Source: Bolinopsis microptera (Eukaryota; Ctenophora; Tentaculata; Lobata; Bolinopsidae). Taken from it: DNA of 31,072 bases. Position numbers and translations under genes: made by a program. Below are positions 6,671 to 28,051 of the stretch, piece by piece (within the stretch, counting starts at the first letter, position 1; every line of letters begins with the position of its first letter). Below the pieces are notes generated by a model. The model was given only the letters and a program-made list of their open reading frames with translations. It ran no database searches and was not told where the DNA came from. The stretch spans positions 1-31,072 of the forward strand of contig NW_026971843.1 in the NCBI RefSeq assembly GCF_026151205.1, written 5' to 3'.

Positions 6671-6890
6671 CATGGTTATGACATGGTTATGACATGGTTA
6701 TGACATGGTTATGACATGGTTATGACATGGTTATGACATGGTTATGACATGGTTATGACATGGTTATGACATGGTTATGATATGGTTATGACATGGTTAT
6801 GACATGGTTATGACATGGTTATGACATGGTTATGACATGGTTATGACATGGTTATGACATGGTTATGACATGGTTATGACATGGTTACAA
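6671..6890 (+). repeat. 11-bp tandem array, left arm of fold-back element
   Basis: About 20 copies of CATGGTTATGA, nearly perfect (one TATGGTTATGA variant). The mirror array in the right arm is about twice as long. Confidence 0.95.
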
Positions 6891-7333
6891 CCAAAACTCC
6901 TTCAGACCAATTTTGAACCATTATGAGCACTTTCAGGATACAATTCATTTCCGTTCATTTCCGTTCATTCTATGAACCTGGGTCATTTGGTGCGACTTTC
7001 GATGACCTCTAGGCCTAGCTTATGACACTATCTATCATAGAAAACCGAATTGGGGTTTCCCAGCCCTTACGTAATAAGTCTCAAATCGAAATGACATGGT
7101 TATGACATGGTTATGACATGGTTACAACCAAAACTCCTTCAGACCAATTTTAAACCATTATGAGCACTTTCAGGATACAATTCATTTCCGTTCATTTCCG
7201 TTCATTCTATGAACCTGGGTCATTTGGTGCGACTTTCGATGACCTCTAGGCCTCCGCCTAGCTTATGACACTATCTATCATAGAAAACCGAATTGGCAGT
7301 TCCCAGCCCTTACGTAATAAGTCTCAAATTGAA
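6888..7333 (+). repeat. tandem duplication within left arm
   Basis: A block of about 200 bp beginning CAACCAAAACTCCTTC occurs at about 6888-7090 and again at about 7125-7333. The copies are separated by three 11-bp repeat units (about 7091-7125). The right arm has this block only once (about 7440-7665), so the arms are not exactly symmetrical. Confidence 0.85.
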
Positions 7334-7334
7334 A

Positions 7335-7460
7335 TGACACACATGCGCCACCTATTGATTTACATGATAAACCTGCTAGCGCATGTCTGTCACTTTTGTT
7401 TTTGACACACATGCGCTAGCAGGTTTATCATGTAAATCAATAGGTGGCGCATGTGTGTCA
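7335..7460. repeat. central palindrome of the fold-back element
   Basis: TGACACACATGCGCCACCTA at about 7334 runs into a mirror copy ending TAGGTGGCGCATGTGTGTCA at about 7459. Stems of nearly 60 bp flank a loop of about 10 nt. The same 60-bp motif, slightly diverged, lies next to both outer ends (about 4706-4764 and 9875-9933). Each arm is thus bounded by inverted copies of it. Confidence 0.9.
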
Positions 7461-7664
7461 TTTCAATTTGAGACTTATTACGTAAGGGCTGGGAACCCCC
7501 AATTCGGTTTTCTATGATAGATAGTGTCATAAGCTAGGCCTAGAGGTCATCGAAAGTCGCACCAAATGACCCAGGTTCATAGAATGAACGGAAATGAACG
7601 GAAATGAATTGTATCCTGAAAGTGCTCATAATGGTTCAAAATTGGTCTGAAGGAGTTTTGGTTG

Positions 7665-8102
7665 TAACCATGTCATAACCATGTCATAACCATGTCATAA
7701 CCATGTCATAACCATGTCGTAACCATGTCATAACCATGTCATAACAATGTCATAACCATGTCATAACCATGTCATAACCATGTCATAACCATATCATAAC
7801 CATGTCATAACCATGTCATAACCATGTCATAACCATATCATAACCATGTCATAACCATGTCATAACCATGTCATAACCATGTCATAACCATGTCATAACC
7901 ATGTCATAACCATATCATAACCATGTCATAACCATGTCATAACAATATCATAACCATGTCATAACCATGTCATAACCATGTCATAACCATATCATAACCA
8001 TGTCATAACCATGTCATAACCATGTCATAACCATATCATAACCATGTCATAACCATGTCATAACCATGTCATAACCATGTCATAACCATGTCATAACCAT
8101 GT
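7665..8102 (-). repeat. 11-bp tandem array, right arm of fold-back element
   Basis: About 40 copies of TCATAACCATG, the reverse complement of the left-arm unit. Variant units with ATATCATAACC recur at intervals of several units. Confidence 0.95.
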
Positions 8103-10011
8103 AAGAAAAAGGCGTCATAGCCATGTCACAAGCATGAATTATAACCGAGAAAACACGTTTACTTTTTCATTATTCTTATTTTGTAAATGTGCTGTAATTA
8201 TTTTGTAATTCTCACGCAGTAACAGGCAATTACGGACAAAAGAAACAATGTTTATATTTATTAGTTTTAGAAGACTGATCAGCGCATCAAATAATGTTTT
8301 TTTGCTAGATCGGCGCGATGCACAATTTATTGACTGGGCCGTACTGCCAGCTAACTGTGACATGTAAAATATTGACGTTGTTTTTATTCGTTCGTAAATG
8401 ATAAACGGTTGCGGAATGACATCGAAAAGGCACAGGCTGAGCGCCCGCCCAGTAACACAGACATTTCGCTTCGAAAAGAAAGTTTTTCGTGTTACTTCGA
8501 ACAAATTTAGACAAGCATCATCCGTCGACGTACCGGCGAGTTCAATTTCCAATCCTTTCTTTAACGGGTGATACTTGTAGTCATAAATATTTGCTTCAAA
8601 TATTAATCAGGACCGTCGACGAGTCCAACTCGGCGCGCGTCCTGGTAGGTTATAAACCTACAAGTCACGCGTCGCGATCCTCATTTGTATTTCATTTCGC
8701 CCCCGATATACCGTGGCGAAAGCCACGATACGACCACGCAGCCCACAACGAAGGGCTGAGGGTAATAAATTTACCGGATGGTGCAGGGAAATTGGTAAAA
8801 ACACGACTTTAATCTTACATTAATTGTATAAAATTCTAAGTTCAGGTAACAAGCAAAGTTTGTTTTTAATTATTACATATAACTATTAGTTGACGGATGT
8901 TACTCGTTTAATTTCTTCGATTCGAAGTTTACTGGCCTACTGGGCCGCGCTCAGCCTCAAGCTTGTCATTCCGCCGAATTTATATGATTATGAACATATA
9001 ATACACAAATTAAGTGCACAAGTAAGTAAGTAAATATTTCATGCTAGGCATGTAGCACCCATTACGGTACGGGTCGGGTAACCACTAACCATCCATTGAG
9101 TTGTTACTTTTTCACTTTGCATAGCAGCTCAGCGAGGTCCGCAGGGGTGCTGGGTGCATGCAGGTGCATTTTGCCTATATCTAACGACAAACAAGGTGGC
9201 CTTACCACTTACGACGAGAAGCATTATTGGATCGATTCGCGGCAAGCTTGCTAGTTGCTACGAAGTATCCCGAAACGGGTTAGTCCATTATCATTTATAA
9301 CAATAAACACATTGTTGTTGGCACTTGGCAGTTGGCTTGATACATGAATTGCATTTCGATCTTCGCGCACGATCCCAGGACACAGGAGCTCGCCTGTCAT
9401 TCGTCGGCGTACACGCTTCAATATGCAATACTTGGCGGCGCTCAGCCTGTTATTCTACCGCACGCGCAGCAGGCAGCTTCATTCCTCCATAGCTCCATTC
9501 TCCGATGAGTATGTTTACAAATATTATAGCTTGTAGCACGATGCGTTACTGTGCCGCGCCGCGCATTCAATTATTGATTATGCTTCTTGCAACGCTAAAT
9601 CGGTGAAATGCGCTACTGTGCCTCGCCGAGCTGCGATGAATTGACATCGTCAATTAACATTATAGCCTGTGCACTGTGCAGCAACAGTACACGCGCTTTA
9701 ACCTAACCATGTGCTTTCGCGCCACTGCAGCGTGCAGGCGCGCTCGTTTCACACGGGAGGCGAGCGGAGAGGAGTTTCCAAGATAAAATAGAGATAAGGA
9801 TAAAATACATATATAAATAGATAAAGATAGCGATTAGAATATTAAATAGAGATTTTACAGCAATTTTACAAAAATGACACACATGGGCCACCTAATGATA
9901 TACATGATAAACCTGCTAGCGCATGTGTATCAAAAAAATTTTTCACACACATACGCTACCTAGGAAGCGCATGTGTATCATTATTTTTTTTGACACACAT
10001 GCGCTTCCATA

Positions 10012-10819: not shown

Positions 10820-12172
10820 TGTAGCGCGATGCGTTACTGTGCCGCGCCGCGCACTCAATAAGGCTTCTCAATAAGGCCACTCAATAAGGCTTCTCTCAGA
10901 TCGTTGACGGATGTTACGCGTCTAAATTTCTTCGAAGTAGCGCGCGCCGCTTTCTTCTCGAAATGTTAATGGCCCGACGGCACGAGCTACGAAGTAGCGC
11001 GCGCCGGGCCAGATCATTAACAATGGTCAATCAGATCGGCGAGATGCGCTACTGTGCCGCGCCGAGCTGCCATGAATTGACATCGTCAATTAAACTTAAT
11101 ACTAGGTAGTGCGCCATCGACAGTGAGCCGCGCGTGCCGACTGTAGGATGGTTTTTTAGCGCTAATTTCGGCCAGCACAATTTTCTTCAAACAAATAAAT
11201 ATTAAGTATCCTTCCCGACCTCCGATCGCAACAAAAATTGGTAAGCTTACTCATAGACTTACAAGGAAGGTGTCCGAAAAGTTTAAAGCATATCCAACCA
11301 TCAGACATTATGTTACAGCTAAAAGTAGCGTATTTTGCTCCATTTTGATCACTATATCAACTCCGATATCCACCAAATTTTTCGGACAGTTGTGAAAGCC
11401 CTATTGGAAGGTCTTCGCCAATTTTCAAAATGATCTCATTCAAGGAACTGAAGATATATCCAAATAATACGACAAAAATCAACGAATTTGGTCAAATTTG
11501 GTCAAATTACGCGAGTTTTACAGCTAATTTTGCTCCAAAAGCCGCGCACCATCAAATATGGCACCTAGGCGATTAGTCGAAACTCACTGATCTTTCCAAA
11601 AAAGGTATGACAAATTTAGTATTGTGAAAATTCTCACAGTCTCTAGAAAACAATGGTACAAAAAATTTCAAAATCCGAGCAAGTTTATTTTTATGGTGCA
11701 CCCCCTATTAATACATACCCCTGGCCGGCAGGATCCTGTCAGCCAGCTATAATAGGGGTATAGAATTGAAATGCTGAGGGAGGGGGTATAGGCAGGGAAG
11801 ATTATTGTGTGATTGATTTAATGTTTAAGCAGTTCGTCAACAAAGTTCAGTTCAAGTACTAATATTAAGTTGACCATTGTTAATGGTCTGGCCCGGCGCG
11901 CGCTACTTTGTACTTCGAAGAAATTTAGACGAGTAACATCCGTCAAATATTAAGGAAATTAGCGAAGTTTTATTGTTGGTAAAATTGATTTGAAGCAGAA
12001 TAGCTAGATTCGGCGTAATGACAGGCTGAGCGCGGCCCAGTTAAGGTTTACTTGTCCATTGTTAATAGATTAGCCGGCCGGCGTAGCACTTGCCTCGGGC
12101 TAACATTTGCATTTCGAGAAGAAAGCGGTGCGTGCTACTTCGGAGAAATTTAAACGAGTAACATCCGTCAAC
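10820..12172. mobile_element. relic of the fold-back family, inverted modules
   Basis: Sequence at 10826-10860 and 11038-11098 matches the right arm of the large element at about 9533-9575 and 9600-9660. The examples are GATGCGTTACTGTGCCGCGC and GAATTGACATCGTCAATTAA. The relic is itself inverted: 10990-11030 pairs with 11871-11920, and 10903-10975 pairs with 12106-12171. The spacer is about 850 bp with no recognisable gene. A small tandem repeat (CAATAAGGC, three copies) is at about 10856-10890. The right end runs directly into LINE ORF1. Confidence 0.65.
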
Positions 12173-12186
12173 AGTCAAAGCACAAA

Positions 12187-13791
12187 GTGCAAAGATTTAA
12201 AAAAGATTTAACGGGTGATACTCGTAAAATATCTGTTCCAGATATTACGAAACAGATAACCTCCCTTGAGGATAAACTTACTTCCCTGATTGCAGACACA
12301 GACAGAATCAGTAGCAGCTACAATCTGATTGCTGAGAGAGTGGTGGCCTTATCAGATATCAACACAGGTCTCACGCACTTGAATCTGCAACAAGACAAGA
12401 CCAATTCAACGCTGAAGGCCTTATCAGAGAAACTCGAGAGCATAACAACCACGGCCACATCACAACCACAACATGTTGCTACGCCTCCTCCTCCTCCTCC
12501 TCCTCCTCCTTCTTTTCACGTGTTTGAGCCCCCTGCAGTCCCATCCGGTATGGTCCCGGCAGTAATTATCAACGATTTGATTGATGAACACGCTGCGCAG
12601 CCCATTGTTGACTTCCTAACAGCCACTGAATTTAATGATGAGAATGGTCACTCAGTGAAATCGTTTGGCCATCCATATTCTTATGTAGGGTCAAAAGCGA
12701 CCACTAGTCCGCCTATCATTCCTGAAGCCTTGCAACCCCTAGTGGATTCGATCAATAAGATGCAGGCTGAAGAGTTCTACAAGAGCTATCCCGAGCTGAA
12801 GAAGAAAGGAGCAGCACCAGTTATCAACTCCTGCTTGGTCAATCGATACGTTGGTCAGGAGAGCTTTCTACCAGAACACTCGGATAATGAGATCACAATC
12901 CACCCCGAATCGTCAATTTATACGATCACAGTGGGTGAACCTTGTGAGATCTTGTTTGCTGACAGAAGCTCCAAGACTGACAGTCTCAAGTTAGACTGCG
13001 GTGACAGATCAATGTACCGAATGACTCGGCGATCGCAGGACTTCTTCTCGCACCGAATAGAGAAGGGCTCTGTCGAGAAAGGAGTGCGATACAGCCTCAC
13101 TTTCCGATCAGTTAGTTGGAAAAATCGCAACTCAACATGCATAGTCGGTGATTCCAATACTGGCCACCTTGCCTTTGGAACTAGCAAACTAAACTCGTTT
13201 GGTGAGCTAATGCCGGGTCAACGGTTCTGGGCCGCTACAATGGAGGACATCAAGCCTGAGTGGTGCTGTGGCTACAACAACATCGTAGTATCTTGTGGCA
13301 TTAACAATCTAAAAAAGAACGATGTTAGAAATCAGGAGGACATTGATCGGCTGTTTCAGCTGTATAAGTCTAAAATTAACGAAATTAGACAAGTTAATAG
13401 TAGTATTAAAATTTTCATTGTTCCGATACTGCCTACCAAGTCTAACGAGCTTAATAAAAAAGCTTTGTATTTTAACTCACGTATATTCAATGATTTAGAT
13501 CAGCCTAGTTTGGGTGTATCACATGTCCGCGGTCTCGATGACTTCTTAGATCGCAACTGTTTGCTGTCTGAGAAGCTATCGAAGAAACTTGATAAAAACC
13601 GTAGACTTGATTTGTTGCACCTAAATGAGGCTGGTGTTAAACGATTTGCGGCTATTATTAAGAAAGCTATATTTAACAGGCTAAATAGAGGAGCTGAAAT
13701 AAGGAGGAGGACCCGAACCCCTAGCAAGACACAGAACGAGCCGATATCGCAAGCTGCAAGCTTACCTAGTCCTGATGATCGCCAGGTATGA
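12187..13791 (+). CDS. LINE ORF1: coiled coil, AlkB-like dioxygenase, SGNH esterase
   Basis: 534 codons; the frame is open from 12154 without an ATG, so the true start is missing. Residues about 15-90 are heptad-like (coiled coil, probable oligomerisation). Pro-only tract at 99-108. Residues about 122-310 match AlkB-family 2OG-Fe(II) oxygenases: NSCLVNRY at 214, iron ligands H231-x-D233 (HSDNE) and H289 (FFSHRIE), and the oxoglutarate-binding signature R301-YSLTF-R307. Residues about 316-495 match SGNH hydrolases: GDSN at 321 with nucleophile S323, GINN at 371, and D475-LL-H478. The C-terminal tail is basic (RGAEIRRRTRTPSK). Esterase domains are known in CR1 ORF1 proteins; the fused AlkB domain is the unusual part. 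A role in removing alkyl or methyl marks from the element's RNA or cDNA is inference. All key residues are present, so the domains look functional. Confidence 0.85.
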   Translation: MQRFKKDLTGDTRKISVPDITKQITSLEDKLTSLIADTDRISSSYNLIAERVVALSDINTGLTHLNLQQDKTNSTLKALSEKLESITTTATSQPQHVATPPPPPPPPPSFHVFEPPAVPSGMVPAVIINDLIDEHAAQPIVDFLTATEFNDENGHSVKSFGHPYSYVGSKATTSPPIIPEALQPLVDSINKMQAEEFYKSYPELKKKGAAPVINSCLVNRYVGQESFLPEHSDNEITIHPESSIYTITVGEPCEILFADRSSKTDSLKLDCGDRSMYRMTRRSQDFFSHRIEKGSVEKGVRYSLTFRSVSWKNRNSTCIVGDSNTGHLAFGTSKLNSFGELMPGQRFWAATMEDIKPEWCCGYNNIVVSCGINNLKKNDVRNQEDIDRLFQLYKSKINEIRQVNSSIKIFIVPILPTKSNELNKKALYFNSRIFNDLDQPSLGVSHVRGLDDFLDRNCLLSEKLSKKLDKNRRLDLLHLNEAGVKRFAAIIKKAIFNRLNRGAEIRRRTRTPSKTQNEPISQAASLPSPDDRQV

Positions 13792-14423
13792 TCAACAAAA
13801 TCTTGAGAGAAAACTGTAACCATTGCCTGAAAAATGTTTACATGGGTCAGCCGTTGTTTGAGTGCAGTAGATGTAATTGTATTGCCCACTCAAAGTGTTT
13901 TTCACAATCAAAAGCACAAATTATTAATGACAACTTCTATTGCTTTTCATGCAAAGACAAAATAGTACACAAGTATAATCCCTTCAAACACTTTATAGAT
14001 GACACAACCTCACCAGAAGCACATGACGAAACATATAAAATATCCTCAATCTTAGACAAATGCCAAGCTTATTCTGCTAATGAAATCAACTCATCGCATG
14101 GAGAAAACCTTAAAAAGTTTTCAAGCTCCTACTTTCTTAACATTGATGGCAATAAAAGCAATTTTGATAGTCTATTAACTGAACTGCACCGCATTAACCA
14201 AAACTTCACCGTAATAGGTTTATCAGAAACTAACATAGGTCCTGATGAAAGCACCGTGTATTCAATTCCTAACTACAATAGTTTTTACCAGAATACTGTA
14301 GGTAATAAATCCAAAGGAACTGGTGTAGCATTATATGTTCAAGATAGACTTAGCAGTATTGTGAAGTGTGAACGAACTTGCGTCAGACGTAACCGAGAAT
14401 TTAGAATCACTATTCGTAACTAG
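13788..14423 (+). CDS. LINE ORF2, first part: PHD finger and N-half of APE endonuclease
   Basis: Starts at an ATG that overlaps the ORF1 stop (ATGA, 13788-13791). A C4HC3 PHD finger is visible: C10-x2-C13-x12-C26-x2-C29-x4-H34-x2-C37-x14-C52-x2-C55. The APE-type endonuclease then begins: YFLNIDGNKSNFDSL, the catalytic-Glu motif GLSETN, and GTGVALYVQDRL. The true frame is lost near 14360 by a 1-nt indel. After it this frame reads a nonsense tail to the stop at 14421, while the endonuclease continues in frame 1. The opposite-strand ORF here is a shadow. Confidence 0.8.
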   Translation: MINKILRENCNHCLKNVYMGQPLFECSRCNCIAHSKCFSQSKAQIINDNFYCFSCKDKIVHKYNPFKHFIDDTTSPEAHDETYKISSILDKCQAYSANEINSSHGENLKKFSSSYFLNIDGNKSNFDSLLTELHRINQNFTVIGLSETNIGPDESTVYSIPNYNSFYQNTVGNKSKGTGVALYVQDRLSSIVKCERTCVRRNREFRITIRN

Positions 14424-15945
14424 TCGTAAAAACTCAGAAGAAGTAACTTTTGGGGTTATTTACCGACCACCCAGTGGTAATTTTGCAAGCTTCCTGACAG
14501 AATTATCCAGAATACTCCAGATATTGCCTAAAAGATCTGCATACATAATGGGAGATTTTAACGTCAACCTTCATGCTAATAGTAAAGAAGTTAACAATCT
14601 CGAGGAGATAATGTTTAGTGCTGGTTTCTCACCTCTTATATCAACACACACGCACGAGAAACCGGGATGTAATCAAACGTGTATTGACAACATTTACACA
14701 AATTATATTAACAAGGTTGTTGCCTCAGGTACAGTATCTGACAGAATCTCGCATCATCTGCCAGTTTTCCATATTTTTGAAGACTTAGCTGTAACTAACT
14801 CTGAACCTCAAGTTAAACATACCCAATATTATTATTACAGTGAATCGAACGTTCGACTTCTTGTTTCGTCTTTAAACCAAGATTTCTCTGAGCATCCACC
14901 AAGAAACTTTAATGAATTTCATGACACATTCAAAACGAATCTAGACAAATCATGTAAACTCAGTAAACCTAAAGTCTCCAAAAGAACGCCAATTAGAAAT
15001 CCGTGGATAACAGGAGGATTAATCGCGTCTATAAATAAAAAACATGAGCTGCACGACCACTGGCATAAAGCGAAAAGAGAGAAATGTTTGCATAATCCAG
15101 GTAAATTTTGTCGTGAGATCAAGGAAGCCTGTCACTGCAATCCTTGTAATGATGCCAGGGAAAAGCATGCTAATTTTACTGACAAACGTAGGAGAGTTAA
15201 ACACGTAATACGACTAGCTCAACGCCACTACACGTGCAACAAAATTGAGGAGTGTCAGGGTGACAGTAAAAAAACCTGGCAGTTAATTAATAAAGTGCGA
15301 GGAAAGCAAAATAAGCAAATGAAACCGTCATTCATGATAAACAATGAGCGTGTTATTTGTCGACGAGTTATTGCTCATGAATTTAACAAGTACTTTGTGT
15401 CAATCGCCTCCAATCTGAACGAGGTCTATGAGAGGAGGATTGATGAAGATCCTATAATTGCTAAATCATTCACTGACTACTTGCCACAGTCCTGTCCATC
15501 AAGTATTTATCTCGCTGAATGTACAAGCTCTGAAATAATACAAATTATAAGTGAATTTAATAACGGTAAAGCTAGCGACATACCGGCACATGTAATGAAG
15601 CAGTGTAGTCAAACTATATCAGAACATCTTGCCAGAATTTATAACAATTGCATGAATGAAGGTGTCTTCCCTGATCAACTGAAAACGGGTAAGATAACCC
15701 CGATATATAAAAAAGAAGATGAGGAATTACTCGAGAATTACAGGCCAGTATCAACATTACCAGTATTTGGCAAAATATTTGAAAAAATTATTTACAGTAG
15801 ATTATACAACTTTTTCTTATCTCGAGGAATAATATTCGAAAATCAGTTCGGCTTTCGAAAAAACCACTCGACAAGTCATGCTCTTAATTACTCCGTAAAT
15901 CATGTCGAAGAAAAACGGAATAATAAAAACCACGTATTAGGAATT
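14368..15945 (+). CDS. LINE ORF2, middle part: APE endonuclease C-half and RT fingers
   Basis: Continues the endonuclease in frame 1 after the frameshift. GVIYRPPSGN, then GDFNVNL at about residue 62. The final motif reads SHHLPV at 128 where the family has SDHLPV, so a catalytic Asp is His. A linker follows with an extra Cys-rich segment at residues 240-270 (CLHNPGKFC...ACHCNPC). The RT begins with KKTWQLINKVRGK, EFNKYFVSIASNL, GVFPDQLKTGKITPIYKK, NYRPVSTLPVFGKIFEKI and FGFRKNHSTSHAL. Homology stops at HVLGI (15945). The same reading frame continues into the inserted repeat for 23 codons and ends at 16017. Confidence 0.85.
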
Positions 15946-15947
15946 TT

Positions 15948-17499
15948 ACCAAAACCCATAATCATGGGTAGAGTGGACCGCTGTCAGTGTCTCTCTTTCC
16001 CAAACAAAAGGAAATGATATTACTTTGATTGACCGTTCTCAAATGCAAAATGATACCGAGAATGAAATCGGTCGCTCGCTTTTCCCATTCATTCACGGCT
16101 TACGAATTGTAATAAGTTTCGATTGATTACATCAATCAGATGCTGTAAAAATCTCTTTGGGTTGCGTTCGGGTCGATACCTAGTATTTCGGGGTAAGGGT
16201 GGTAGTTATTAGTATTACTTATTGAATTAGCTGAAGTTTATTGAATCTTCATTGCCGAGTACAGCTGCCTTTGGGTAGTTTTTCTTAATCTATTACAATT
16301 GTAAATGAATGGGAAAAGCGAGCGACCGATTTCATTCTCGGTATCATTTTGCATTTGAGAACGGTCAATCAAAGTAATATCATTTCCTTTTGTTTGGGAA
16401 AGAGAGACACTGACAGCGGTCCACTCTACCCATGATTATGGGTTTTGGTAAAATATCATCTCTTTTTGATTATAATGTCAGGGTCCTTTATAAAGTCGAA
16501 ATATAAACTGATATCTTCATTAATAAGGAGGAAGTTTCAACGATTTCGAAATCTATCCTTTAAAAACATTTCCTTGTGTTTAGGGAAGCATATCGGTCGA
16601 TCACTGACTGAATATGCCACTTAATACTCATTCAAGTTGGCATTAAATTCATATATAATGACATTAAACTGTCGTGGCAAAGCAGAATTTGTTGGAAATC
16701 ACGAATGAGCAAAATTCTCACCTTTCGCACGTGCAAACTTTGAGCAGACGTTGCGTGCGCATCCAATATTGAATCGCCGTAAATTTTTGCATGTAATTGT
16801 TTTATATATAGCTTGATAAGCATGCAAAGTTTCAAAGTATTTTAAGAAGAACTGTAATCACAACGGCACTCTAAAGTTGACAGAAAATGACGAAAACAGC
16901 AATTTTCAGTGATTTTAGCGATTTTCTATCAATTTGGGCGTGTCCCAACGTGTGCAACTTTTCGATTTTCAACTTTAAAACTAGCCTATGACACAATTTA
17001 TACCTATAGGAAGCAGAACTGAGCTCCACAACCCAAGGCATGGCCCAACACCAGAGAATACTAAATCGCAAAATTGACGTTTTTATAAAATAATTCTTCA
17101 AAAAAGCACAAACTTCAATGACGAATATCTTTATGAAGGCAAGCTAGAAAAACTTTCCGGTAGATTTTCAGATTGCTTGAACAATTATCTAAGATGAAAA
17201 TTTCCTCAGATTTTGAATAAAATTACTCCTTAATGGTTTAAAATTAATTTTAAAAGTTATTACTTTGTCAAAAATCAAGTTTTAAAAACGGTTAACTTGA
17301 TGACGTCATCAAGGGGTGTTTATGACGTCATATAATTTTTGTATACAATGTAAACTAAAGTATAAACAATTATTTGCAAGACCTGTGGTCGGAAATGGCT
17401 GTATCTTTTATACTTTTAAATCTATGGACAATTAAATACAGGCTACAATTGACTGGCAAAGCGTCTATCCCTGAATATATATATGTATATATGTATTTG
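15948..17499 (+). repeat. tandem unit 1 (1552 bp), hairpin plus 1.05-kb block
   Basis: Starts ACCAAAACCCATAATCATGG. The first 502 bp (15948-16449) form an inverted repeat with arms of about 145 bp around a loop of about 200 bp. It is followed by a block of about 1050 bp with no gene. It contains an 18-bp perfect palindrome centred on TGACGTCA (17296-17313) and a second TGACGTCA at 17323. It is more similar to unit 3 than to unit 2 in the 1-kb block. Confidence 0.9.
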
Positions 17500-19029
17500 A
17501 CCAAAACCCATAATCATGGGTAGAGTGGACCGCTGCCAGTGTCTCTCTTTCCCAAACAAAAGGAAATGATATTAATTTGATTGACCGTTCTCAAATGCAA
17601 GATGATACCGAGAATGAAATCGGTCGCTCGCTTTTCCCATTCATTCACGGCTTACAATCAATCACATGCTGTAAAAATCTCTTTGGGTTGCGTTCGGGTC
17701 GATATACCTAGTATTTCGGGATAAGGGTGGTACTGGTAGTTAGTGAATTAGCTGAAGTTTATTGATTCTTTATTGCTGAGTACAGCTGCCTTCGGGTAGT
17801 TCTTCTTAATCTATTACAATTGTAAATTAATGGGAAAAGCGAGCGACCGATTTCATTCTCGGTATCATCTTGCATTTGAGAACGGTCAATCAAATTAATA
17901 TCATTTCCTTTTGTTTGGGAAAGAGAGACACTGGCAGCGGTCCACTCTACCCATGATTATGGGTTTTGGTCAAATATCATCTCTTTTTGATTATAATGTC
18001 AGGGTACTTTATAAAGTCGAAATATAAACTGATGTCTTCATTAATAAGGAGGAAGTTTTAACAATTTCGAAATTTTTCCTTTAAAAACATTTCCTTGTGT
18101 TTAGGTAAGCATATCGGTCTATCACTGACTGAACATAAAACATTATAATCATTCAAGTTGCCATTAAATTCATATATAATGACATTGAACTGTCGTGGTA
18201 AAGCAGAATTTGTTCGAAACCGCGAATGAGCAAAATTCTCACCGTTCGCACGTGCAAACTTTGAGCGGTTGTTGCGTGCGCATCCAATACTGAATCGCCG
18301 TAAATGTTTGCATAGCGGTATTTTATATATAGTTTGATAAGCGTGCAAAGTTTCAAAAGATTTCAAATAGAACTTGGATCACAACGGGACTCCAAAGTTG
18401 ATAAAAATCGTGGAAACACAAATTTTCAGTGATTTTAGCAATTTTTAATCAATTTCGGCGTGTCCCCACGTGTGCAACTTTTCGATTTTTAACTTTAAAA
18501 CTAGCCTAATGCACAATTTATACCTATAGGAAGCAGAACTGAGCTCCACAACCCAAGGGATAGCCCAACACCAGAGAATACTAAATCGCAAAATTAACGT
18601 TTTTATAAAATAATTTTTCAAAAAAGCACTAACTTCAAAGGCAAATATCTTTATGAAGGAGTAAGATAAGAAAACTTTCCGGTAGATTTTCAGAATGCTT
18701 GAACAATTATCTAAGGTGAAAATTTCCTCAGATGTTGAAAAAAATTACTTTTAAATGGTGTAAAATCAATTTTAAAAGTTATTACTTTGTCGAAAATCAA
18801 GTTTAAAAAACGGTTAACTTGATGACGTCATCAAGGGGTGTTTATGACGTCAAATAATTTTTTTATACAATATAAACTAAAATGTAAACAATTATTTTCA
18901 AGATCTGTGGTCGGAAATGGCTGTATCTTTTATACTTTTGAATCTATGGAAACTTAAATTTAGGATACAATTGACTACATTTGACTGTCAAAGCGTCTAT
19001 CCCTGAATATGTATATATATATGTATTTT
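17500..19029 (+). repeat. tandem unit 2 (1530 bp)
   Basis: Same organisation: hairpin 17500-17970, then a block of about 1060 bp. It differs from units 1 and 3 by scattered substitutions and small indels. The palindrome CTTGATGACGTCATCAAG is at 18818-18835, followed by a second TGACGTCA. Confidence 0.9.
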
Positions 19030-20575
19030 ACCAAAACCCATATTTATGGGTAGAGTGGACCGTTGCCAGTGTCTCTCTTTCCCAAACAAAAGGAAATGAT
19101 ATTAATTTGATTGACCGTTCTCAAATGCAAAATGATACCGAGAATGAAATCGGTCGCTCGCTTTTCCCATTCATTCACGGCTTACGAATTGTATAAATAA
19201 GTTTCGATTGATTACATCAATCAGATGCTGTAAAAATCTCTTTGGGTTGCGTTCGGGTCGATACCTAGTATTTCGGGATAAGGGACAAGGGTGGTAGTTA
19301 TTACTTATTGAACAAGCTGAAGTTTATTGAATCTTCATTGCCGAGTACAGCTGCCTTTGGGTAGTTCTTCTTAATCTATTACAATTGTAAATGAATGGGA
19401 AAAGCGAGCGACCGATTTCATTCTCGGTATCATTTTGCATTTGAGAACGGTCAATCAAATTAATATCATTTCCTTTTGTTTGGGAAAGAGAGACACTGGC
19501 AACGGTCCACTCTACCCATAAATATGGGTTTTGGTAAAATATCATCTCTTTTTGATTATGATGTCAGGGTACTTTATAAAGTCGAAATATAAACTGATAT
19601 CTTCATTAATAAGGAGGAAGTTTCAACGATTTCGAAATTTTTCCTTTAAAAACATTTCCTTGTGTTTAGGGAAGCATATCGGTCGATCACTGACTGAATA
19701 TGCCACTTAATACTCATTTAAGTTGGCATTAAATTCATATATAATGACATTAAACTGTCGTGGCAAAGCAGAATTTGTTGGAAATCACGAATGAGCAAAA
19801 TTCTCACCTTTCGCACGTGCAAACTTTGAGCGGACGTTGCGTGCGCATCCAATATTGAATCGCCGTAAATTTTTGCATGTAATTGTTTTATATATAGCTT
19901 GATAAGCATGCAAAGTTTCAAAGTATTTCAAGAAGAACTGTAATCACAACGGCACTCTAAAGTTGACAGAAAATGACGAAAACAGCAATTTTCAGTGATT
20001 TTAGCAATTTTCTATCAATTTGGGCGTGTCTCCACGTGTGCAACTTTTCGATTTTCAACTTTAAAACTAGCCTAATGCACAATTTATACCTATAGGAAGC
20101 AGAACTGAGCTCCACAACCCAAGGCATGGCCCAACACCAGAGAATACTAAATCGCAAAATTGACGTTTTTATAAAATAATTCTTCAAAAAAGCACAAACT
20201 TCAATGACGAATATTTTTATGAAGGAGCAAGCTAGAACAACTTTCCGGTAGATTTTCAGAATGCTTGAACAATTATCTAAGGTAAAAATCTCCTAAGATT
20301 TTGAATAAAATTACTCCTTAATGGTTTAAAATTAATTTTAAAAGTTATTACTTTGTCAAAAATCAAGTTTTAAAAACGGTTAACTTGATGACGTCATTAA
20401 GGGGTGTTTATGACGTCAAATAATTTTGTTATTCAATGTAAACTAAAGTGTAAACAATTATTCGCAAGACATGTGGTCGGAAATGGCTGCATCTTTTATA
20501 CTTTTGAATCTATGGACACTTGAATACAGGCTACAATTGACTGGCAAAGCGTCTATCCCTGAATATATATGTATA
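19030..20575 (+). repeat. tandem unit 3 (1546 bp)
   Basis: Hairpin 19030-19535 with the variant ACCAAAACCCATATTTATGG, then the long block. The palindrome at 20384-20401 has one mismatch (ATTAAG). The unit's last bases (GTATA, then TATTT) are split by the element at 20576-22022. Confidence 0.9.
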
Positions 20576-22022
20576 CTAGTGTAACCCGTGCCTTCGGCCG
20601 GGACTTTACTGTCACAGTTGCAATGTAAAAGTATACAACCGCATTATATAATATTTGATATCACGCATAACGCTGTCTTATGAAAGTATGAAATCTCCCT
20701 ACAGTTGAAACAAAGCGGCCGCAAGAGTGAGTTCTAAGCTTATAGCATATTACGTGGGGCTAAACTAATTACGGTACATGTTATCCTCCTCGTTCTCTCT
20801 CCCATCCATTTATGTCACATTTCTGGAACAAAATCATCAATTAAACCACTTACCACCGGCCGATTTTTATAAAATTTGCTTATGGGCTTCGTCAGAGTTT
20901 TGTCAGCACTATACCGAAAAAACCAGTCCCGTAACTATTACCGTTTTTTTTGTATAACCGTTCGGAAATTACACACAGACAGACAGACACACAGACAGAC
21001 ACACATTCTGGTGTTATTAAGTTGATATATATCACGACAATCTATCGTAAAACAGGGGTTCTAGAAAACCCATTTCCCGATGCTCCTGAAACCTGAAACT
21101 TTTTTTGCAGTCGATTCGGTCAACGTCTAGACGCCCTGAAAAATGTCAGATCTCTAACTCAATTTTAACATGGTTTTTAAGGCACCTGAATATGGCGATT
21201 TTGGGTTTTTTACCGAATTTCGTATAACAGTGCTCATGGCGAGTATTTTATGCAAATTTCTTAAAAATCTCAACATAACTATTTTTTATTCCTGTCATCT
21301 TTGACATCAAATTAGAATGTTTTGAACTAAAAATAAATCTGCTGAACGACTTCCGATGAGTCTTAATGCCTGAAAAACTCCTGCCGGAGTGCACGAAAGA
21401 GGCTTGTAACGTGTACCAAAGGGGGTATAATAGTAAAGGGGGTATAATAGTAAAGGGGGTATAATAGTAAAGGGGGTACATAGTATACCCACAATAAATG
21501 CACCGGTCGTGCTTGCCAGCACTGTGATCACGACAATCTATCGTAAAACAGGGGTTCTAGAAAACCCACTTCCCGATGCTCCTGAAACCTGAAACTTTTT
21601 TTGCAGTCGATTTGGTCAACGTCTAGACGCCCTGAAAAATTTCAGATCTCTAACTCAATTTTAACATGGTTTTTAAGGCACCTGAATATGGCGATTTTGG
21701 GTTTTTTACCGAATTTCGTATAACAGCTGTGCTGGCGAGTATTTTATGCAAATTTCTTTAAAATCTCAACATAACTATTTTTTATTCCTGTCATCTTTGA
21801 CATCAAATTAGAATGTTTTGAACTAAAAATAAATCTGCTGAACGACTTCCGATGAGTCTTAATGCCTGAAAAACGCCTCCGGCCGGAGTGCACGCTTCGC
21901 GTGCACGAAAGAGGCTTGTAACGTGTACCAAAGGGGGTATAATAGTAAAGGGGGTATAATAGTAAAGGGGGTACATAGTATACCCACAATAAATGCACCG
22001 GTCGTGCTTGCCAGCACTGTGA
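20576..22022 (-). mobile_element. probable non-autonomous Helitron with duplicated 5' end
   Basis: Read on the - strand, the element ends in a GC-rich hairpin (CCCG-GCC-GAA-GGC-A-CGGG), six bases, then CTAG (20576-20579), the Helitron 3' signature. It starts TCACAGTGCTGG (TC start) at 22022. The flanking bases are A (20575) and T (22023), as expected for insertion between A and T; there is no target duplication. It encodes no Rep/helicase. It contains an ACAGAC-type microsatellite at about 20971-21007. The terminal 495 bp at the 5' side is present twice in tandem. Confidence 0.6.
21032..22022. repeat. 496-bp tandem duplication with 17-bp subrepeats
   Basis: The copies are 21032-21527 and 21528-22022, both starting TCACGACAATCTATCG and ending CCAGCACTGTGA. 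Each contains a run of AGGGGGTATAATAGTAA, about four copies in the first and three in the second. The second copy also has a small insertion around 21893. The short minus-strand ORFs in both copies are repeat-derived. Confidence 0.9.
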
Positions 22023-22024
22023 TA

Positions 22025-23350
22025 TTTATCGATCTCTCTAAAGCATTTGATACCTTACCATTTGATATGCTACTTAAGAAACTTAGTAATTACGGAGTTA
22101 GAGGAAACGCACTAAAGCTGCTCTCCAGCTATCTAAATAACAGATACCAGTATGTTAGTGTACTTGGTGAAGAATCAGAGCCTCTCCCAGTTAAACTAGG
22201 CGTACCACAAGGATCTGTTTTGGGCCCCTTGCTCTTTCTTATCTATATAAATGACATCTATAGATGTAGTACATTAGGAAAGTTTGTACTATTTGCAGAT
22301 GACACAAACATCTTTGTAGCTGCTGAAACTAAGGAACTAGCATATAAAATAGCGAATGAAATTCTTGACTCTGTGTGCCAATATATGCGCCATAATCTAC
22401 TGCACATTAATGTTAAAAAATCTTGTTACATGTACTTCTCGCTTACTAAACGTAAGACCATTGATAATACTGAAAATGACTTGAATCTAGAAATTGATGG
22501 AATCCCGATCAAACAGGTTACTGAAACGAAATTTCTAGGTGTTATTATAGATGACAAACTGAGTTGGACACCTCATATCGAGAAACTAACTAAGAAATTA
22601 AACAGTATATGTGGCCGTATTTATCGAATAAAAAACTCCCTCCCCAGCCAGCTGTACAAACAGATATACCACACTCTTTTTGAATCTCATCTAGGATACG
22701 GTATAACTGTATGGGGTGGTGTATCAATTAATAAGCTTTCACCGCTATTCCTTGCACAGAAGAAATGTGTCCGAATCTTATTTGGGGACTCGGAAGCATT
22801 TAGCGACAAGTTTAAAACTTGTTCTCGTAGCAGGCCAATCCAGTGCAGTATAAACAAGAAAGGTCAAATATCCAATGAATCAAATATACCTCACATTAAA
22901 CCGTGTTCTATATGTATCAGCTTGAGGAAGACTGGTGATAGACAAGTAAGGCCACATCGCTGCCAAATACTTGGGGCAGATTTCCACTCTAGAGAATCAA
23001 CAAAACCGATTTTCCAATCTAAGGAACTAATGACAGTACATAACATATATAGATACAGATGCATTACTGAAACAATGAAGATAGTGAAGAGTCATCAGCC
23101 CATATCCATGTATTCTCTATTTAAGAAGTCTCAGCTCAGAGATGACAGATTTGTGACACCACACTCATCTCACAATTTCGCATATAAAGGGGCAAATCTA
23201 TGGAATACGTTTCTTGAACAGTCAAATGCACGTGGTAAAATAGGTTCTCTAGGCTCAATTAAATCCCAATTGAAGTATTCTATCATGAAGGCTCAACACC
23301 AACCTAACAATATTAACTGGCAGGACTTAAACTTCAACACTTTCCTATGA
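22025..23350 (+). CDS. LINE ORF2, last part: RT palm and C-terminus
   Basis: 441 codons from the insertion junction to TGA at 23348. RT motif A FIDLSKAFDT is at the start, then GVPQGSVLGPLLFLIYIND, the catalytic FADD at residues 90-93, LLHINVKKS, KFLGVIIDDKLSW and a thumb region. All RT catalytic Asp residues are present. Relative to the second LINE it carries an extra segment of about 40 residues at 271-312 (Cys-containing, KPCSICISL) before ILGADF. The same frame extends upstream into the inserted repeat (from 21923), which is not real coding sequence. Confidence 0.85.
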   Translation, partial: FIDLSKAFDTLPFDMLLKKLSNYGVRGNALKLLSSYLNNRYQYVSVLGEESEPLPVKLGVPQGSVLGPLLFLIYINDIYRCSTLGKFVLFADDTNIFVAAETKELAYKIANEILDSVCQYMRHNLLHINVKKSCYMYFSLTKRKTIDNTENDLNLEIDGIPIKQVTETKFLGVIIDDKLSWTPHIEKLTKKLNSICGRIYRIKNSLPSQLYKQIYHTLFESHLGYGITVWGGVSINKLSPLFLAQKKCVRILFGDSEAFSDKFKTCSRSRPIQCSINKKGQISNESNIPHIKPCSICISLRKTGDRQVRPHRCQILGADFHSRESTKPIFQSKELMTVHNIYRYRCITETMKIVKSHQPISMYSLFKKSQLRDDRFVTPHSSHNFAYKGANLWNTFLEQSNARGKIGSLGSIKSQLKYSIMKAQHQPNNINWQDLNFNTFL

Positions 23351-25860
23351 AAAGACCCCCATTTATATTTATATCTTTTACATTTTACACCTGTCACTCA
23401 CATCATATATACACCACAAAAGAAAAAGATTCATTCAATCATTACATTATACACTCACTCCACCAAACACGCACACAACCCATTGAAGAAGGTTACACGC
23501 GGGTGTACCGTTCGCTTTATCCGAAGGGAAAAATGATACTTTACGTAACGCGCGATTTACGTCTTGGTAGCTAAATTATTCAAGCGCTATTTGTCAGAGC
23601 GACACAAATGCGCGCGGCGCGAGCGCTTGCGCGGCTCTCTTATCCACCACTCATGTTTACATCGTACCAGGCAATGGTTCAGTTTAATTATGGTAAGGGC
23701 ACAGCCTGTCAAAAACCCTTTTCGGATGATCCGTCGACACCGCCTGAAGGTGACTGCATAATAACGGATCATCGTGGAATCAAACGTTAATAAGCTTGCA
23801 GCTTCCGATGTCAATGTATTTATCCTGGTTTCGCATGCTTGAACTGGTTTTGGACTTGCTCTATCCAGAGCCCTTGCGCTTGCAGTAGCGCGCGCCCGCC
23901 TCACTTGTGAAACAAGCGCGCCCGAAGTGGCGCGAAAGCACATGGTTAGGTGAAGTTTTGGACCTCTTCATGCTTTTAATTTGTTTATTATTGTTATTTA
24001 GTATTATGAGCTGATGTGTACATATACATACGGTATCTAAAAATTAAGCGTATAGCGAGCATATTTAAACAATTTTCAAGCTATAATGCATTGCTGATTG
24101 CAAGCAGCTTCAACTTAAATATCGCATAAAAATCATTTAACTCAAAACTAAAATTTTATTGGAATATAGGGAAAACTAAAATAAAATTAATGTCAGACCC
24201 GTCGCCACTCTCAGCAGTCAACCAGGGCTCATAAAAGCTTAACAGCGCCTGGGTCCGTTCACCAACTGTGCTAATGTGAGTGGCGGTGTGGTAAGACCCA
24301 TTTTTAACAGCGTGAATATTTATTAAATACAAGCGCGCTAGTATTTAAATATATAGCTGCTAGCATACTTGTTTCATTTAATTTTAAATCAAATTTATTC
24401 GGATATATATTTATTGATTATGTATTAAATTGGTGATCAATAATAAAATTGTCTTTTCTCAAAAATTGTCTTTTCTCAAAAAAAATTGTCTTTTCTCATA
24501 TATTGGAATAGGGCCGTCGACGAGTCCAACTCGGCGCGCGTCCTGGTAGGTTGTAAACCTACAAAAACTATTATTCTTGCTTCGCATAGCAACGATCTCG
24601 ATGCTCGATTGTATCACGTCGTGATCCCCATTGTCATTTCAGTCCTGTAGCGTTTCTACAATACAGGTGGGTAATACTTATCATATGTCATACGTTGTAT
24701 GACCCGCCGCGCACGAGTGCGCGGCTCCCCTGTATCGTAGAAACTCTACATAGTGAAACGACTTGCTCTAACCAGAGCCCTTTCGCTTGCAGTAGCGCGC
24801 GACCGCCGAAGGCGGCAAAGGAGCACTGCAGTATTATTATACTGCGGTATTATCAATTATTATACCGTAGTTCCTTTATTTTATTGTCTAAAAGTGAACA
24901 ATACCAAATTAAAATAAACATTCAGAGGCATTTATAGCCTTCGATAAGCATAAATCATCGCACACGATGTACGTGCAGCCGGGGTTAAATACGACGCTAT
25001 TGTCAGCACTGCGCGCGCGTACACGTACCATATATCTTATGTGTGCTGATCCATAGGTTTCTACTCGATCTACTTGTGAAACAAGTACGCGTAGACAGGA
25101 AAACAAATTTTAGGAAAACAAATTTAAATTTTGGTATTTATTAATAACAATCAAAACATATCATATCATAAAAATAAAGCCGCGCGTTGGTTGACTGCCT
25201 CAGTAAGGTGAATAATATAAGCTCGAAGGTGCCCTGCGCATTTACAGAACCTCAGAAATCATACATCACTACGAGTTACTCATGCTTGCTTTTTTAATTT
25301 TTATAGGAGTGTAGATTGTCAGGTATTTCACTCATTCATACTTAGTCGGTTTAAAGCTGTTATATTTATGTTTAGAACTCACTATTGTTTAAACTATGAA
25401 AGCAGAACGTAGGTTTGTTTTCCTATAGTCTGATAATATTTATTTATTTTATTCTATAACAAGCATTCTGTAAATTGGAGTGTCGTATTTATTATAAAAG
25501 AGCCAGCCAACCTCCGCATTATAATCTTTTGTGTGCCAAGTTCGTTTATAAAATCTTATCATATAATAAAATTGATCCAATAATCTTAGATGAACGGTAT
25601 ATATATCATAGCTCATCGTTATTAAAATCCGAATGGATGAATTAATCAAGTAATGTTCCCTTTCAACACAACTAAACAACAAACAAATGCTTGCTCACCA
25701 GTGGTGACGCAATCGTAGGGGCATGCAGTTATTTCGGATAACTCTCAACCCGACGACAGCGTCGAAAAATAATCAAATTATGCATTTGCGCCATACTGGA
25801 CACATTTTATATTTAATATTCTACAGTTTGTAGAAATTAGTGTTATCTACTGCAGTAAGC
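23351..25860. other. gene-poor stretch with GC-rich dispersed modules
   Basis: No gene recognised. The first 200 bp are probably LINE 3' UTR. 23590-23950 holds CG-rich sequence related to the fold-back arms; TGGCGCGAAAGCACATGGTT is at about 23927 and at 4913. 24512-24570 matches 8605-8660 (GTCGACGAGTCCAACTCGGC). A module with CAGTAGCGCGCG occurs at about 23884 and 24790. Three copies of AATTGTCTTTTCTCA are at about 24448-24500. 25450-25860 is AT-rich with nothing recognisable. Confidence 0.6.
24646..24750. repeat. nested hairpin structure
   Basis: Outer arms TGTAGCGTTTCTACAATACA... (24646-24667) and the near-complement ending GAAACTCTACA (24729-24750), about 20 of 22 paired. Inside are CATACGTTGTATG (24689-24701) and a perfect GCCGCGCACGAGTGCGCGGC hairpin (24706-24725). 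It does not match tRNA or another RNA family I know. Confidence 0.6.
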
Positions 25861-28010: not shown

Positions 28011-28051
28011 GAATGAAACGACCGTGGGGTCACAATGTGATACAAGGTCAT
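26204..28051 (-). CDS. reverse transcriptase fragment of second LINE
   Basis: 615 codons, no internal stop. RT motifs in order: GVFPDDLKTGRISPIYKK, NYRPVSTLAVFGKIFEKI, YGFRKNHSTSHAL, motif A FIDLSKAFDT, GVPQGSCLGPLLFIIYVND, FADD, KFLGVIIDEKLKW, then the C-terminal region TCARTR, QILGREFFEKEHTKPLF. The C-terminus is ELNFDKNELVF. It lacks the PHD and endonuclease regions. It is clearly diverged at the protein level from the first LINE across the palm, so it is a different subfamily. It serves here as the reference that shows where the first LINE is interrupted. Confidence 0.85.
   Translation of the reverse strand: MTLYHIVTPRSFHSHSHVFNKYFVSLASNLNGAYNEIGELTINNLPSFYDYLPRANTSSIFMNDCTADEVRMILSELKNGKSSDIPIHVVKESSRVICPILSLLYNECMRNGVFPDDLKTGRISPIYKKDNEELLENYRPVSTLAVFGKIFEKIIYNRLYSFFQSQKMIYENQYGFRKNHSTSHALNSSVNYIESCLSKKLHVLGIFIDLSKAFDTISHEKLLNKLDNYGIRGNTNRLIASYLSNRYQYVSVLGEESDKLPVLFGVPQGSCLGPLLFIIYVNDLFRTTDLGKFILFADDTNIFVVDECRKKLYERANEILRLLHQYMKCNLLHINVKKCCYIHFKPSRTATDNEADNESEYILTLNNTVIKQVKETKFLGVIIDEKLKWDVQIRALNSKLRCEIGRLSRIRHVIPKKHHKELYHTLFESHLRFGISVWGGSSNNMLQPIFITQKKCIRILFGDLEAYLDKFRTCARTRCIDEQILGREFFEKEHTKPLFNKNGLLTVHNLYKYTCLLKLFKIVRLESPISLLSLLHRSPSQRRSDQFITPNPSSSFIYQSTKMWNDCRKIDSLISFTKSTNLVKVTLKSELLKIQPRYEELEWTELNFDKNELVF

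What the first reader, a model, noticed from the sequence alone, without database searches (positions are those of the whole stretch)
12553..13671. LINE ORF1 carries an AlkB-like dioxygenase fused to an SGNH esterase
Seen: HSD, FFSHR and R-YSLTF-R in the AlkB order, followed at once by GDSN, GINN and DLLH of an SGNH hydrolase, all in one ORF directly upstream of a PHD-EN-RT ORF2. Known: CR1 ORF1 proteins can carry an esterase; AlkB enzymes remove alkyl or methyl groups from nucleic acids and occur in some plant RNA viruses. I do not know of a described AlkB-SGNH ORF1. Inference: the element may protect or demethylate its own RNA or cDNA, or escape RNA-methylation control.
Basis: partly seen in the sequence, partly recalled or inferred. 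Interest (0 to 1): 0.87.

Follow-up and report, generated by a model that had tools for sequence, protein, structure and literature searches.

The report
AlkB demethylase inside comb-jelly LINE retrotransposons
In a comb jelly, a jumping gene (a LINE) carries in its first protein what looks like a working enzyme for removing methyl groups from RNA or DNA, joined to an esterase; the pair recurs in related elements, so it seems to be an established part of their machinery and not an accident.

The parts
12245..24498 (+). 5'-truncated copy of an AlkB-ORF1 LINE, interrupted by a nested insertion (15949-22021)
   Evidence: blastn: 12245-15948 is 99.27% and 22022-23394 is 99.56% identical to copy L009; pieces of L011 reach 24457
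12154..13788 (+). ORF1 open frame (545 codons, stop at 13789-13791; element-derived from 12245; PHD-bearing N-terminus missing)
12235..12453 (+). long helix, probable coiled coil (residues 28-100)
   Evidence: predicted helix 28-100
12541..13119 (+). AlkB domain (residues 130-322)
12877..12891 (+). HSDNE motif: Fe ligands H242 and D244, acidic E246
   Evidence: 120/120 each in 120 aligned rows
13051..13053 (+). third Fe ligand H300
   Evidence: 119/120
13087..13107 (+). RYSLTFR: 2OG-binding R312 and R318
   Evidence: 118/120 and 120/120
13129..13698 (+). SGNH esterase domain (residues 326-515)
13153..13155 (+). SGNH nucleophile S334 (GDSN)
   Evidence: 120/120
13303..13305 (+). SGNH block III N384
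   Evidence: 120/120
13609..13620 (+). SGNH D486-x-x-H489
   Evidence: 113/114 and 115/115
13788..14423 (+). ORF2 piece 1: zinc finger (C1/PHD-like) and start of endonuclease
   Evidence: weak, sub-cut-off Pfam C1_1, PHD, Exo_endo_phos; same start as the open ORF2 in L009
14365..15948 (+). ORF2 piece 2 (after a frameshift): endonuclease and first part of RT
   Evidence: RVT_1 E 2.7e-8; Exo_endo_phos_2 E 3.5e-4, below cut-off
15949..22021 (.). nested insertion holding three tandem units of about 1.55 kb and a shorter duplication
22022..23350 (+). ORF2 piece 3: rest of RT
   Evidence: 99.56% to L009; open frame 21923-23350
24445..24498 (+). 3' tail of LINE: tandem AAAATTGTCTTTTCTCA
   Evidence: fetched L011 ends in the same unit

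Best explanation
It is a degraded copy of a ctenophore LINE whose ORF1 protein is built as PHD finger - coiled coil - AlkB dioxygenase - SGNH esterase. Shown: the predicted folds, the retained catalytic residues of both enzymes, purifying selection on AlkB, the multi-copy and multi-family spread, and attachment to two diverged RT lineages. Inferred: ORF1p multimerises through its coiled coil, coats the RNA it was translated from, and the AlkB part oxidatively removes methyl groups on the Watson-Crick face (m1A, m3C) from the element's RNA template and/or the single-stranded cDNA, so that target-primed reverse transcription can run to the 5' end and damage is not fixed. The esterase would act at membranes or lipids, as proposed for ZfL2-1. 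The RNA that is copied is a host-trans-spliced mRNA, as shown by spliced leaders at the 5' ends of genomic copies.
Against: No activity or substrate was tested. Cis action on RNA or cDNA, rather than on host DNA or RNA, is inference. The best structural match, ALKBH2, is a dsDNA enzyme. Esterase-type ORF1p domains did not bind oligo(A) RNA in the one study seen (PMC3905857), so RNA coating is not certain for this class. The homologue set is biased to sequences that resemble the query. The acidic residue at H+4 is also common in other AlkB proteins found here (109 of 113 with a letter there among P0121-P0238, many of them ORF1 fragments), so it is not special to this family. In PMC12295762 the rate of E175A is given only as a dash, as for three other mutants.
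Confidence: 0.58

Rival explanations
1. An m6A eraser: the AlkB part removes m6A from the element's RNA so that it escapes m6A-based control, as proposed for orchid Gypsy elements.
For: Direct precedent of a retroelement-encoded AlkB with m6A demethylase activity in vitro (PMC9289625, abstract and passages); Fe and 2OG residues are present.
Against: The orchid domain nests in the ALKBH5 group by that paper; here sequence and fold lie nearest ALKBH2/3, and an acidic residue at H+4 is kept in every row of the two LINE sets with a letter there. That ALKBH5 lacks it is recalled, not tested.
Confidence: 0.15
2. A chromatin/DNA tool: with the PHD finger as histone reader, the AlkB part repairs or oxidises methylated bases (3mC, perhaps 5mC) in DNA at the target site or in the element's own copies.
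For: Best fold match is the dsDNA enzyme ALKBH2; PHD-like matches at the ORF1 N-terminus; ALKBH2 co-evolves with DNMTs (PMC9246332, passages) and ABH2/3 can act on 5mC in vitro (PMC11431407, passages); Mnemiopsis has CG methylation.
Against: The ORF1 of the second lineage (L060) shows no PHD match, so PHD and AlkB are not tied; nothing seen here shows ORF1p acting on chromatin.
Confidence: 0.15
3. AlkB serves mainly as a nucleic-acid binding fold that replaces the RRM or zinc knuckles which esterase-type ORF1ps lack; catalysis is secondary.
For: None of the esterase ORF1ps in RepBase had an RRM or another structured RNA-binding domain (PMC3905857 section 13); no RRM or CCHC match in the ORF1s scanned.
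Against: A binding-only role does not explain Fe ligands and 2OG arginines kept in two lineages.
Confidence: 0.09
4. A chance fusion or relic without function, captured by a few copies.
For: The window copy itself is a broken element; one sampled copy (L068) appears to have lost most of AlkB.
Against: All 80 scored of 1457 candidate places in the genome match, 14 of 16 fetched elements have long open ORF1 and ORF2, purifying selection, two RT lineages.
Confidence: 0.03

Closest known systems
Esterase-type (Type IV) ORF1 of CR1/L2 LINEs, e.g. zebrafish ZfL2-1 (PMC3905857, passages and section 13; PMC4120745, passages)
   Same: Coiled coil followed by an SGNH esterase in ORF1, upstream of an EN-RT ORF2; PHD fingers occur in CR1/L2 ORF1s.
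   Different: AlkB does not occur in the text of PMC4120745, nor dioxygenase in PMC3905857 (word counts); here AlkB sits between coiled coil and esterase, and the host is a ctenophore.
Orchid Ty3/Gypsy elements with an ALKBH5-like ORF (PMC9289625, abstract and passages)
   Same: A retroelement that encodes an AlkB dioxygenase with intact HxD...H and R...R.
   Different: LTR element, separate ORF, ALKBH5-type, reported from Phalaenopsis; here a LINE ORF1 fusion, nearest ALKBH2/3, in several families and two RT lineages.
AlkB domains of plant RNA viruses (PMC544882, abstract and outline)
   Same: AlkB carried by a selfish RNA replicon, proposed to protect its RNA from methylation.
   Different: RNA virus polyproteins; no RT, no SGNH. 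They appear among structural matches as general AlkB relatives.
Human ALKBH2 / ALKBH3
   Different: About 20-25% identity in the structural alignments; cellular repair enzymes, not fused to PHD, coiled coil or esterase.
GDSL ORF3 of bdelloid LTR elements (PMC5408684, passages)
   Same: GDSL/SGNH esterases shared among unrelated retroelements.
   Different: AlkB does not occur in that text; the paper finds LINE esterases separate from the bdelloid ones.

Membership tests
AlkB family (2OG-Fe(II) oxygenase, PF13532) | HxD...H iron triad | tested here: met
   120/120, 120/120, 119/120; 68/68, 68/68, 68/69 in second lineage
AlkB family (2OG-Fe(II) oxygenase, PF13532) | Arg pair for 2OG (RxxxxxR) | tested here: met
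   118/120 and 120/120; 69/69 and 69/69
AlkB family (2OG-Fe(II) oxygenase, PF13532) | Double-stranded beta-helix fold | tested here: met
AlkB family (2OG-Fe(II) oxygenase, PF13532) | Oxidative dealkylation of nucleic acid | not testable with these tools
   needs protein
ALKBH2/3 (m1A/m3C) type within AlkB | Nearest relatives by profile and fold | tested here: met
   ALKBH2 and ALKBH3 rank first; identity only about 20-25%; no tree with all ALKBH groups was made
ALKBH2/3 (m1A/m3C) type within AlkB | Acidic residue four after the first His (E175 in ALKBH2) | tested here: met
   E in 120/120 and 68/68; also common in other AlkB proteins found (109 of 113), so weakly diagnostic
SGNH hydrolases | Ser, Asn, Asp-x-x-His catalytic blocks | tested here: met
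   S334 120/120, N384 120/120, D486 113/114, H489 115/115; which Gly of block II serves was not established
SGNH hydrolases | SGNH fold | tested here: met
SGNH hydrolases | Pfam sequence profile | tested here: inconclusive
   PF13472 stays below its cut-off in every protein that I scanned where it matched, and L014 and L062 gave no match; the precomputed domains of some homologues do list it
LINE (non-LTR retrotransposon) | ORF1 plus ORF2 with APE-like endonuclease and RT | tested here: met
   14 of 16 fetched loci have both long open frames; RVT_1 E 2e-36 to 2e-38 in four ORF2s; endonuclease profile over its cut-off in L009 and L014, just below in L018, below in L020
LINE (non-LTR retrotransposon) | 5' truncation and short-repeat 3' tail | tested here: met
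   window copy starts inside ORF1 at 12245; tail 24445-24498
LINE (non-LTR retrotransposon) | Target-site duplications | tested here: inconclusive
   none found by a simple exact search on seven copies with uncertain ends
CR1/L2 clade | RT phylogeny with reference elements | not tested
   no Repbase set at hand; only own-genome RTs were compared
Type IV (esterase) ORF1 | SGNH esterase in ORF1, usually after a coiled coil | tested here: met
   definition from PMC4120745 and PMC3905857
PHD-bearing ORF1 | PHD finger | tested here: inconclusive
   absent from the truncated window copy and not matched in L060; in longer copies over the Pfam cut-off only in L024 (25.9 against 24), weaker in L009, L014, L018, L020, L062; profile hits PHD structures at 5e-4
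Orchid Gypsy AlkB elements | LTR/Gypsy element and ALKBH5-type AlkB in a separate ORF | tested here: not met
   ORF2 is endonuclease-RT of LINE type; AlkB fused inside ORF1; nearest ALKBH2/3

The most novel reading that the evidence does not exclude
Ctenophore LINEs have made a nucleic-acid demethylase a core part of their ORF1 particle: a template-clearing enzyme that strips reverse-transcription-blocking methyl groups (m1A, m3C, or marks near a methylated spliced-leader cap) from the element's own trans-spliced RNA, so that full-length copies including the host spliced leader can be made. As far as my searches show this would be the first animal retroelement with its own nucleic-acid demethylase; since two RT lineages only 33-37% identical share it, it would be either old or passed between lineages by ORF1 exchange.
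Probability: 0.35. Interest if true: 0.92.

Novelty: new variant of a known kind. Interest (0 to 1): 0.8.

Why it matters
Esterase-type ORF1 proteins had no known structured RNA-binding domain in the 2013 survey that I read in part, and what their enzymes do in retrotransposition is an open question. A conserved second enzyme of known chemistry (AlkB) fused to that esterase gives a testable handle: a retroelement that edits the methylation of its own RNA or cDNA. As far as my searches show it would be the first animal case and, unlike the orchid case, which its authors call recent, it spans several families and two RT lineages. The spliced-leader ends add a molecular record that LINE RNA is trans-spliced before it is copied, with two leaders used on one acceptor. 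That makes ctenophores a good system in which to ask how RNA processing and RNA methylation limit LINEs.

Tried and rejected
Chance or one-off fusion: rejected, since all 80 scored of 1457 candidate places in the genome match and the protein searches gave 211 and 71 homologues.

Viral relatives: a scan of IMG/VR with alignment A1 gave 23 pattern matches and no confirmed relative. The structural matches shown from BFVD are, where named, AlkB domains of giant and RNA viruses and proteins of phages including SGNH ones (50 rows shown); they show the folds, not kinship.

AlkB was found by profile in L060, L062 and L063 (most of the domain) and in L061 and L065 (its C-terminal part). L068 shows an AlkB N-terminal part by eye and then an apparent deletion to the esterase end. 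L066 shows only the end of SGNH in a short frame. L064, L067 and L069 gave no ORF1 (the slice missed it or another element lies there). No intact ORF1 without AlkB was seen, but ten slices do not exclude such families.

Age: the shared ORF1 in two RT lineages need not mean age. These LINEs exchange parts (L014 and L017 share AlkB-SGNH-ORF2 but not the N-terminus), so ORF1 exchange is possible.

Origin of the domain: in the tree of 65 rows the LINE AlkBs including L060 join with weak support (93/77). L060 groups firmly with P0167, P0168, P0169, P0174 and P0180 (99/87), which an earlier tree (96 rows) had placed with the stand-alone enzymes. Rows dropped: one search used 21 of the 120 first-search proteins and left out fragments; one search used 12 of them, 6 of the 10 rows of A2, and left out near-duplicates and others of the 62 stand-alone rows, among them the long-branch rows P0196, P0219 and P0227. 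The donor of the AlkB gene is not identified.

RT clade: not assigned, no reference set. Target-site duplications: none found. In the 50 rows shown for the second lineage no AlkB group other than ALKBH2/3 is listed; that is not evidence of absence.

Among the rows listed, organism names are Mnemiopsis leidyi and Bolinopsis microptera, plus one bacterial MAG (P0111), which I take for contamination (inference). Presence outside ctenophores is neither shown nor excluded.

Full report

Where it is. The window is contig 84 of a 264.65-Mb assembly. Contig 4 of that assembly is 16,326,010 bases long, the length given for the contig of P0112, named Bolinopsis microptera LOC134813758; the host is therefore very probably that lobate ctenophore (taxonomy).

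The element. The window copy is 99.27% identical to copy L009 from 12245 to 15948 and 99.56% from 22022 to 23394; pieces of L011 carry the match to 24457, at a tail of tandem AAAATTGTCTTTTCTCA, 24445-24498. It is thus a 5'-truncated LINE with a 6.07-kb nested insertion and a frameshift in ORF2. Relatives show what was lost: of 16 loci that I chose among the 80 ORF1 matches, 14 have a long open ORF1 (645-750 codons) next to a long open ORF2 (1122-1184 codons), in five groups by DNA similarity; L012 and L023 do not. In the five ORF1s scanned, Pfam finds AlkB over its cut-off in all five, PHD over it only in L024 and below it in four, GDSL below it in four and not at all in L014. In the four ORF2s scanned it finds RT (RVT_1 E 2e-36 to 2e-38) in all, the endonuclease over a cut-off in two and below it in two, and an N-terminal zinc finger (C1, RING or PHD-like) only by weak matches in three.

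Is the enzyme kept? In the 120 aligned rows (window, P0001-P0118, P0120) H242, D244, E246, S314, T316, R318, S334 and N384 are invariant, H300 is 119, R312 118, D486 113 of 114 and H489 115 of 115; 107 of the 109 rows that cover both domains have the whole set of nine catalytic residues. In the L060 lineage AlkB was matched in 70 of 71 proteins, with H 68/68, D 68/68, E 68/68, H 68/69, R 69/69, R 69/69; the Asn column is not conserved there in that alignment (25 of 66). Between copies, AlkB dN/dS is 0.17 (L009-L010), 0.18 (L014-L017), 0.10 (L014-L016), 0.21 (L016-L017), 0.17 (L020-L021), 0.08 (L022-L024), 0.15 and 0.18 (window with L009 and L010); the remaining pairs are too close or saturated. 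SGNH lies at 0.10-0.33 in the same pairs except 0.57 for window-L009 (three changes in all), RT at 0-0.06 where computed. Simple counts for five of these pairs, which share L014 twice, reject neutrality for AlkB at P 0.003 to 6e-14. The proteins were collected by similarity, which favours conserved ones.

Which chemistry? Profile and fold both rank ALKBH2 and ALKBH3 first. The invariant E246 aligns with the E of HRDDE in ALKBH2, which by the numbering in PMC12295762 is E175; there, in models, it belongs to a hydrogen-bond network with the amino group of the flipped methylated base, and the table gives a dash for the rate of E175A, as for three other mutants (passages). An E at this place is also common in the other AlkB proteins found (109 of 113). 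ABH3 prefers ssDNA and mRNA, ABH2 dsDNA; both act on m1A and m3C, which block DNA and RNA polymerases (PMC11431407, passages). Since a LINE must copy its RNA end to end at the target site, an RNP-borne enzyme that removes such groups would pay directly. That step is inference.

An unexpected link: spliced leaders. 10 of 16 fetched AlkB-LINE copies carry a host spliced leader about 20 to 950 bases before the ORF1 open frame, seven leader 1 and three leader 2. Leader 1 resembles, by eye, the published Hormiphora leader (PMC8527503, passages). It occurs 1332 times exactly in the genome, 74 times followed by GTAA, most of these in tandem arrays on contigs 3, 5 and 13 that look like SL RNA genes; the reversed control gave none. 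Leader 2 occurs 118 times, 35 followed by GT, 20 of these in one array on contig 5 with a spacing of mostly 428 bases. L009 and L010 are the same family (94.6%), yet L009 has leader 2 and L010 leader 1 on the same acceptor (GATGTGCAATGA); L022/L024 and L023 repeat this on TTCAGG. So the RNAs that were reverse-transcribed had been trans-spliced. Six of 16 copies (L011, L013, L015, L017, L020, L021) showed no leader there. Leader relics in retrocopies are known from dinoflagellates (PMC12014239, passages). Metazoan SL caps are usually hypermethylated (recalled); whether AlkB acts there is speculation.

What is known. Esterase ORF1s (Type IV) and PHD-bearing ORF1s are described for CR1/L2 LINEs (PMC4120745, PMC3905857, passages); in RepBase no esterase ORF1p had a structured RNA-binding domain (PMC3905857 section 13). 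A retroelement AlkB is described for orchid Gypsy elements, ALKBH5-like, with m6A demethylase activity in vitro (PMC9289625, abstract and passages), and AlkB is known in plant RNA viruses (PMC544882, abstract and outline). Searches of the open-access library listed, by title and abstract, no paper on a LINE with AlkB; the listings are partial, and preprints, most subscription papers and Repbase were not searched, so priority is not certain.

Verdict. The finding is real and wider than it looked: a conserved AlkB-SGNH ORF1 in several LINE families of ctenophores. Identity is near certain; activity is likely; the exact role is open.

Noticed in passing
L009, L010, L012, L014, L016, L018, L019, L022, L023, L024 (5' of ORF1): LINE copies carry one of two host spliced leaders upstream of ORF1; the same family (L009/L010) has different leaders on the same acceptor, so the LINE RNA was trans-spliced before reverse transcription.
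   Followed up: yes
G000 contigs C3:13511054-13533412, C5:21341874-21352046, C13:12783459-12945000, C13:15242052-15247446; leader 2 at C5:1039671-1050564: Arrays of leader followed by a GT donor, probably the SL RNA genes. The other 1258 exact copies of leader 1 lack GTAA; the 100 listed, all on contig 1, are scattered and may be relics in retrocopies.
   Followed up: partly
L014 vs L017; L020 vs L021: LINE families are mosaics: L014 and L017 share AlkB-SGNH-ORF2 at low dS but have very different PHD/coiled-coil parts; L020 and L021 differ far more in AlkB (dS 1.0) than in coiled coil or EN (dS 0.12-0.15).
   Followed up: partly
window 26204-28051 (-): A second LINE fragment: RT 78% identical to that of L020, which is an AlkB-ORF1 element; its ORF1 was not seen in the window.
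   Followed up: partly
window 15949-22021: Nested insertion with three tandem units of about 1.55 kb, inverted-repeat ends by eye, and a 300-bp duplication 21031-21330 / 21527-21826.
   Followed up: no
window 4968-5478 and 9163-9673; 6639-8133: 511-bp inverted repeat arms 99% complementary around 11-bp satellite arrays (ACATGGTTATG and its complement).
   Followed up: no
window 524-1506: A degenerate 27-bp repeat array, acidic (DDDSTDSKE-like) in one + frame.
   Followed up: no
window 29523-30980 (+): Open frame of 485 codons that looks by eye like a long coiled-coil protein; not identified.
   Followed up: no
L068 (G000:C2:5921596-5923596): A LINE copy whose AlkB N-terminal part runs straight into an SGNH C-terminal part, as if the middle were deleted; its N-terminus resembles, by eye, Mnemiopsis P0196.
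   Followed up: no
P0111: An AlkB-LINE ORF1 sits in a MAG labelled Saccharospirillaceae bacterium; probably eukaryotic contamination of the bin.
   Followed up: no
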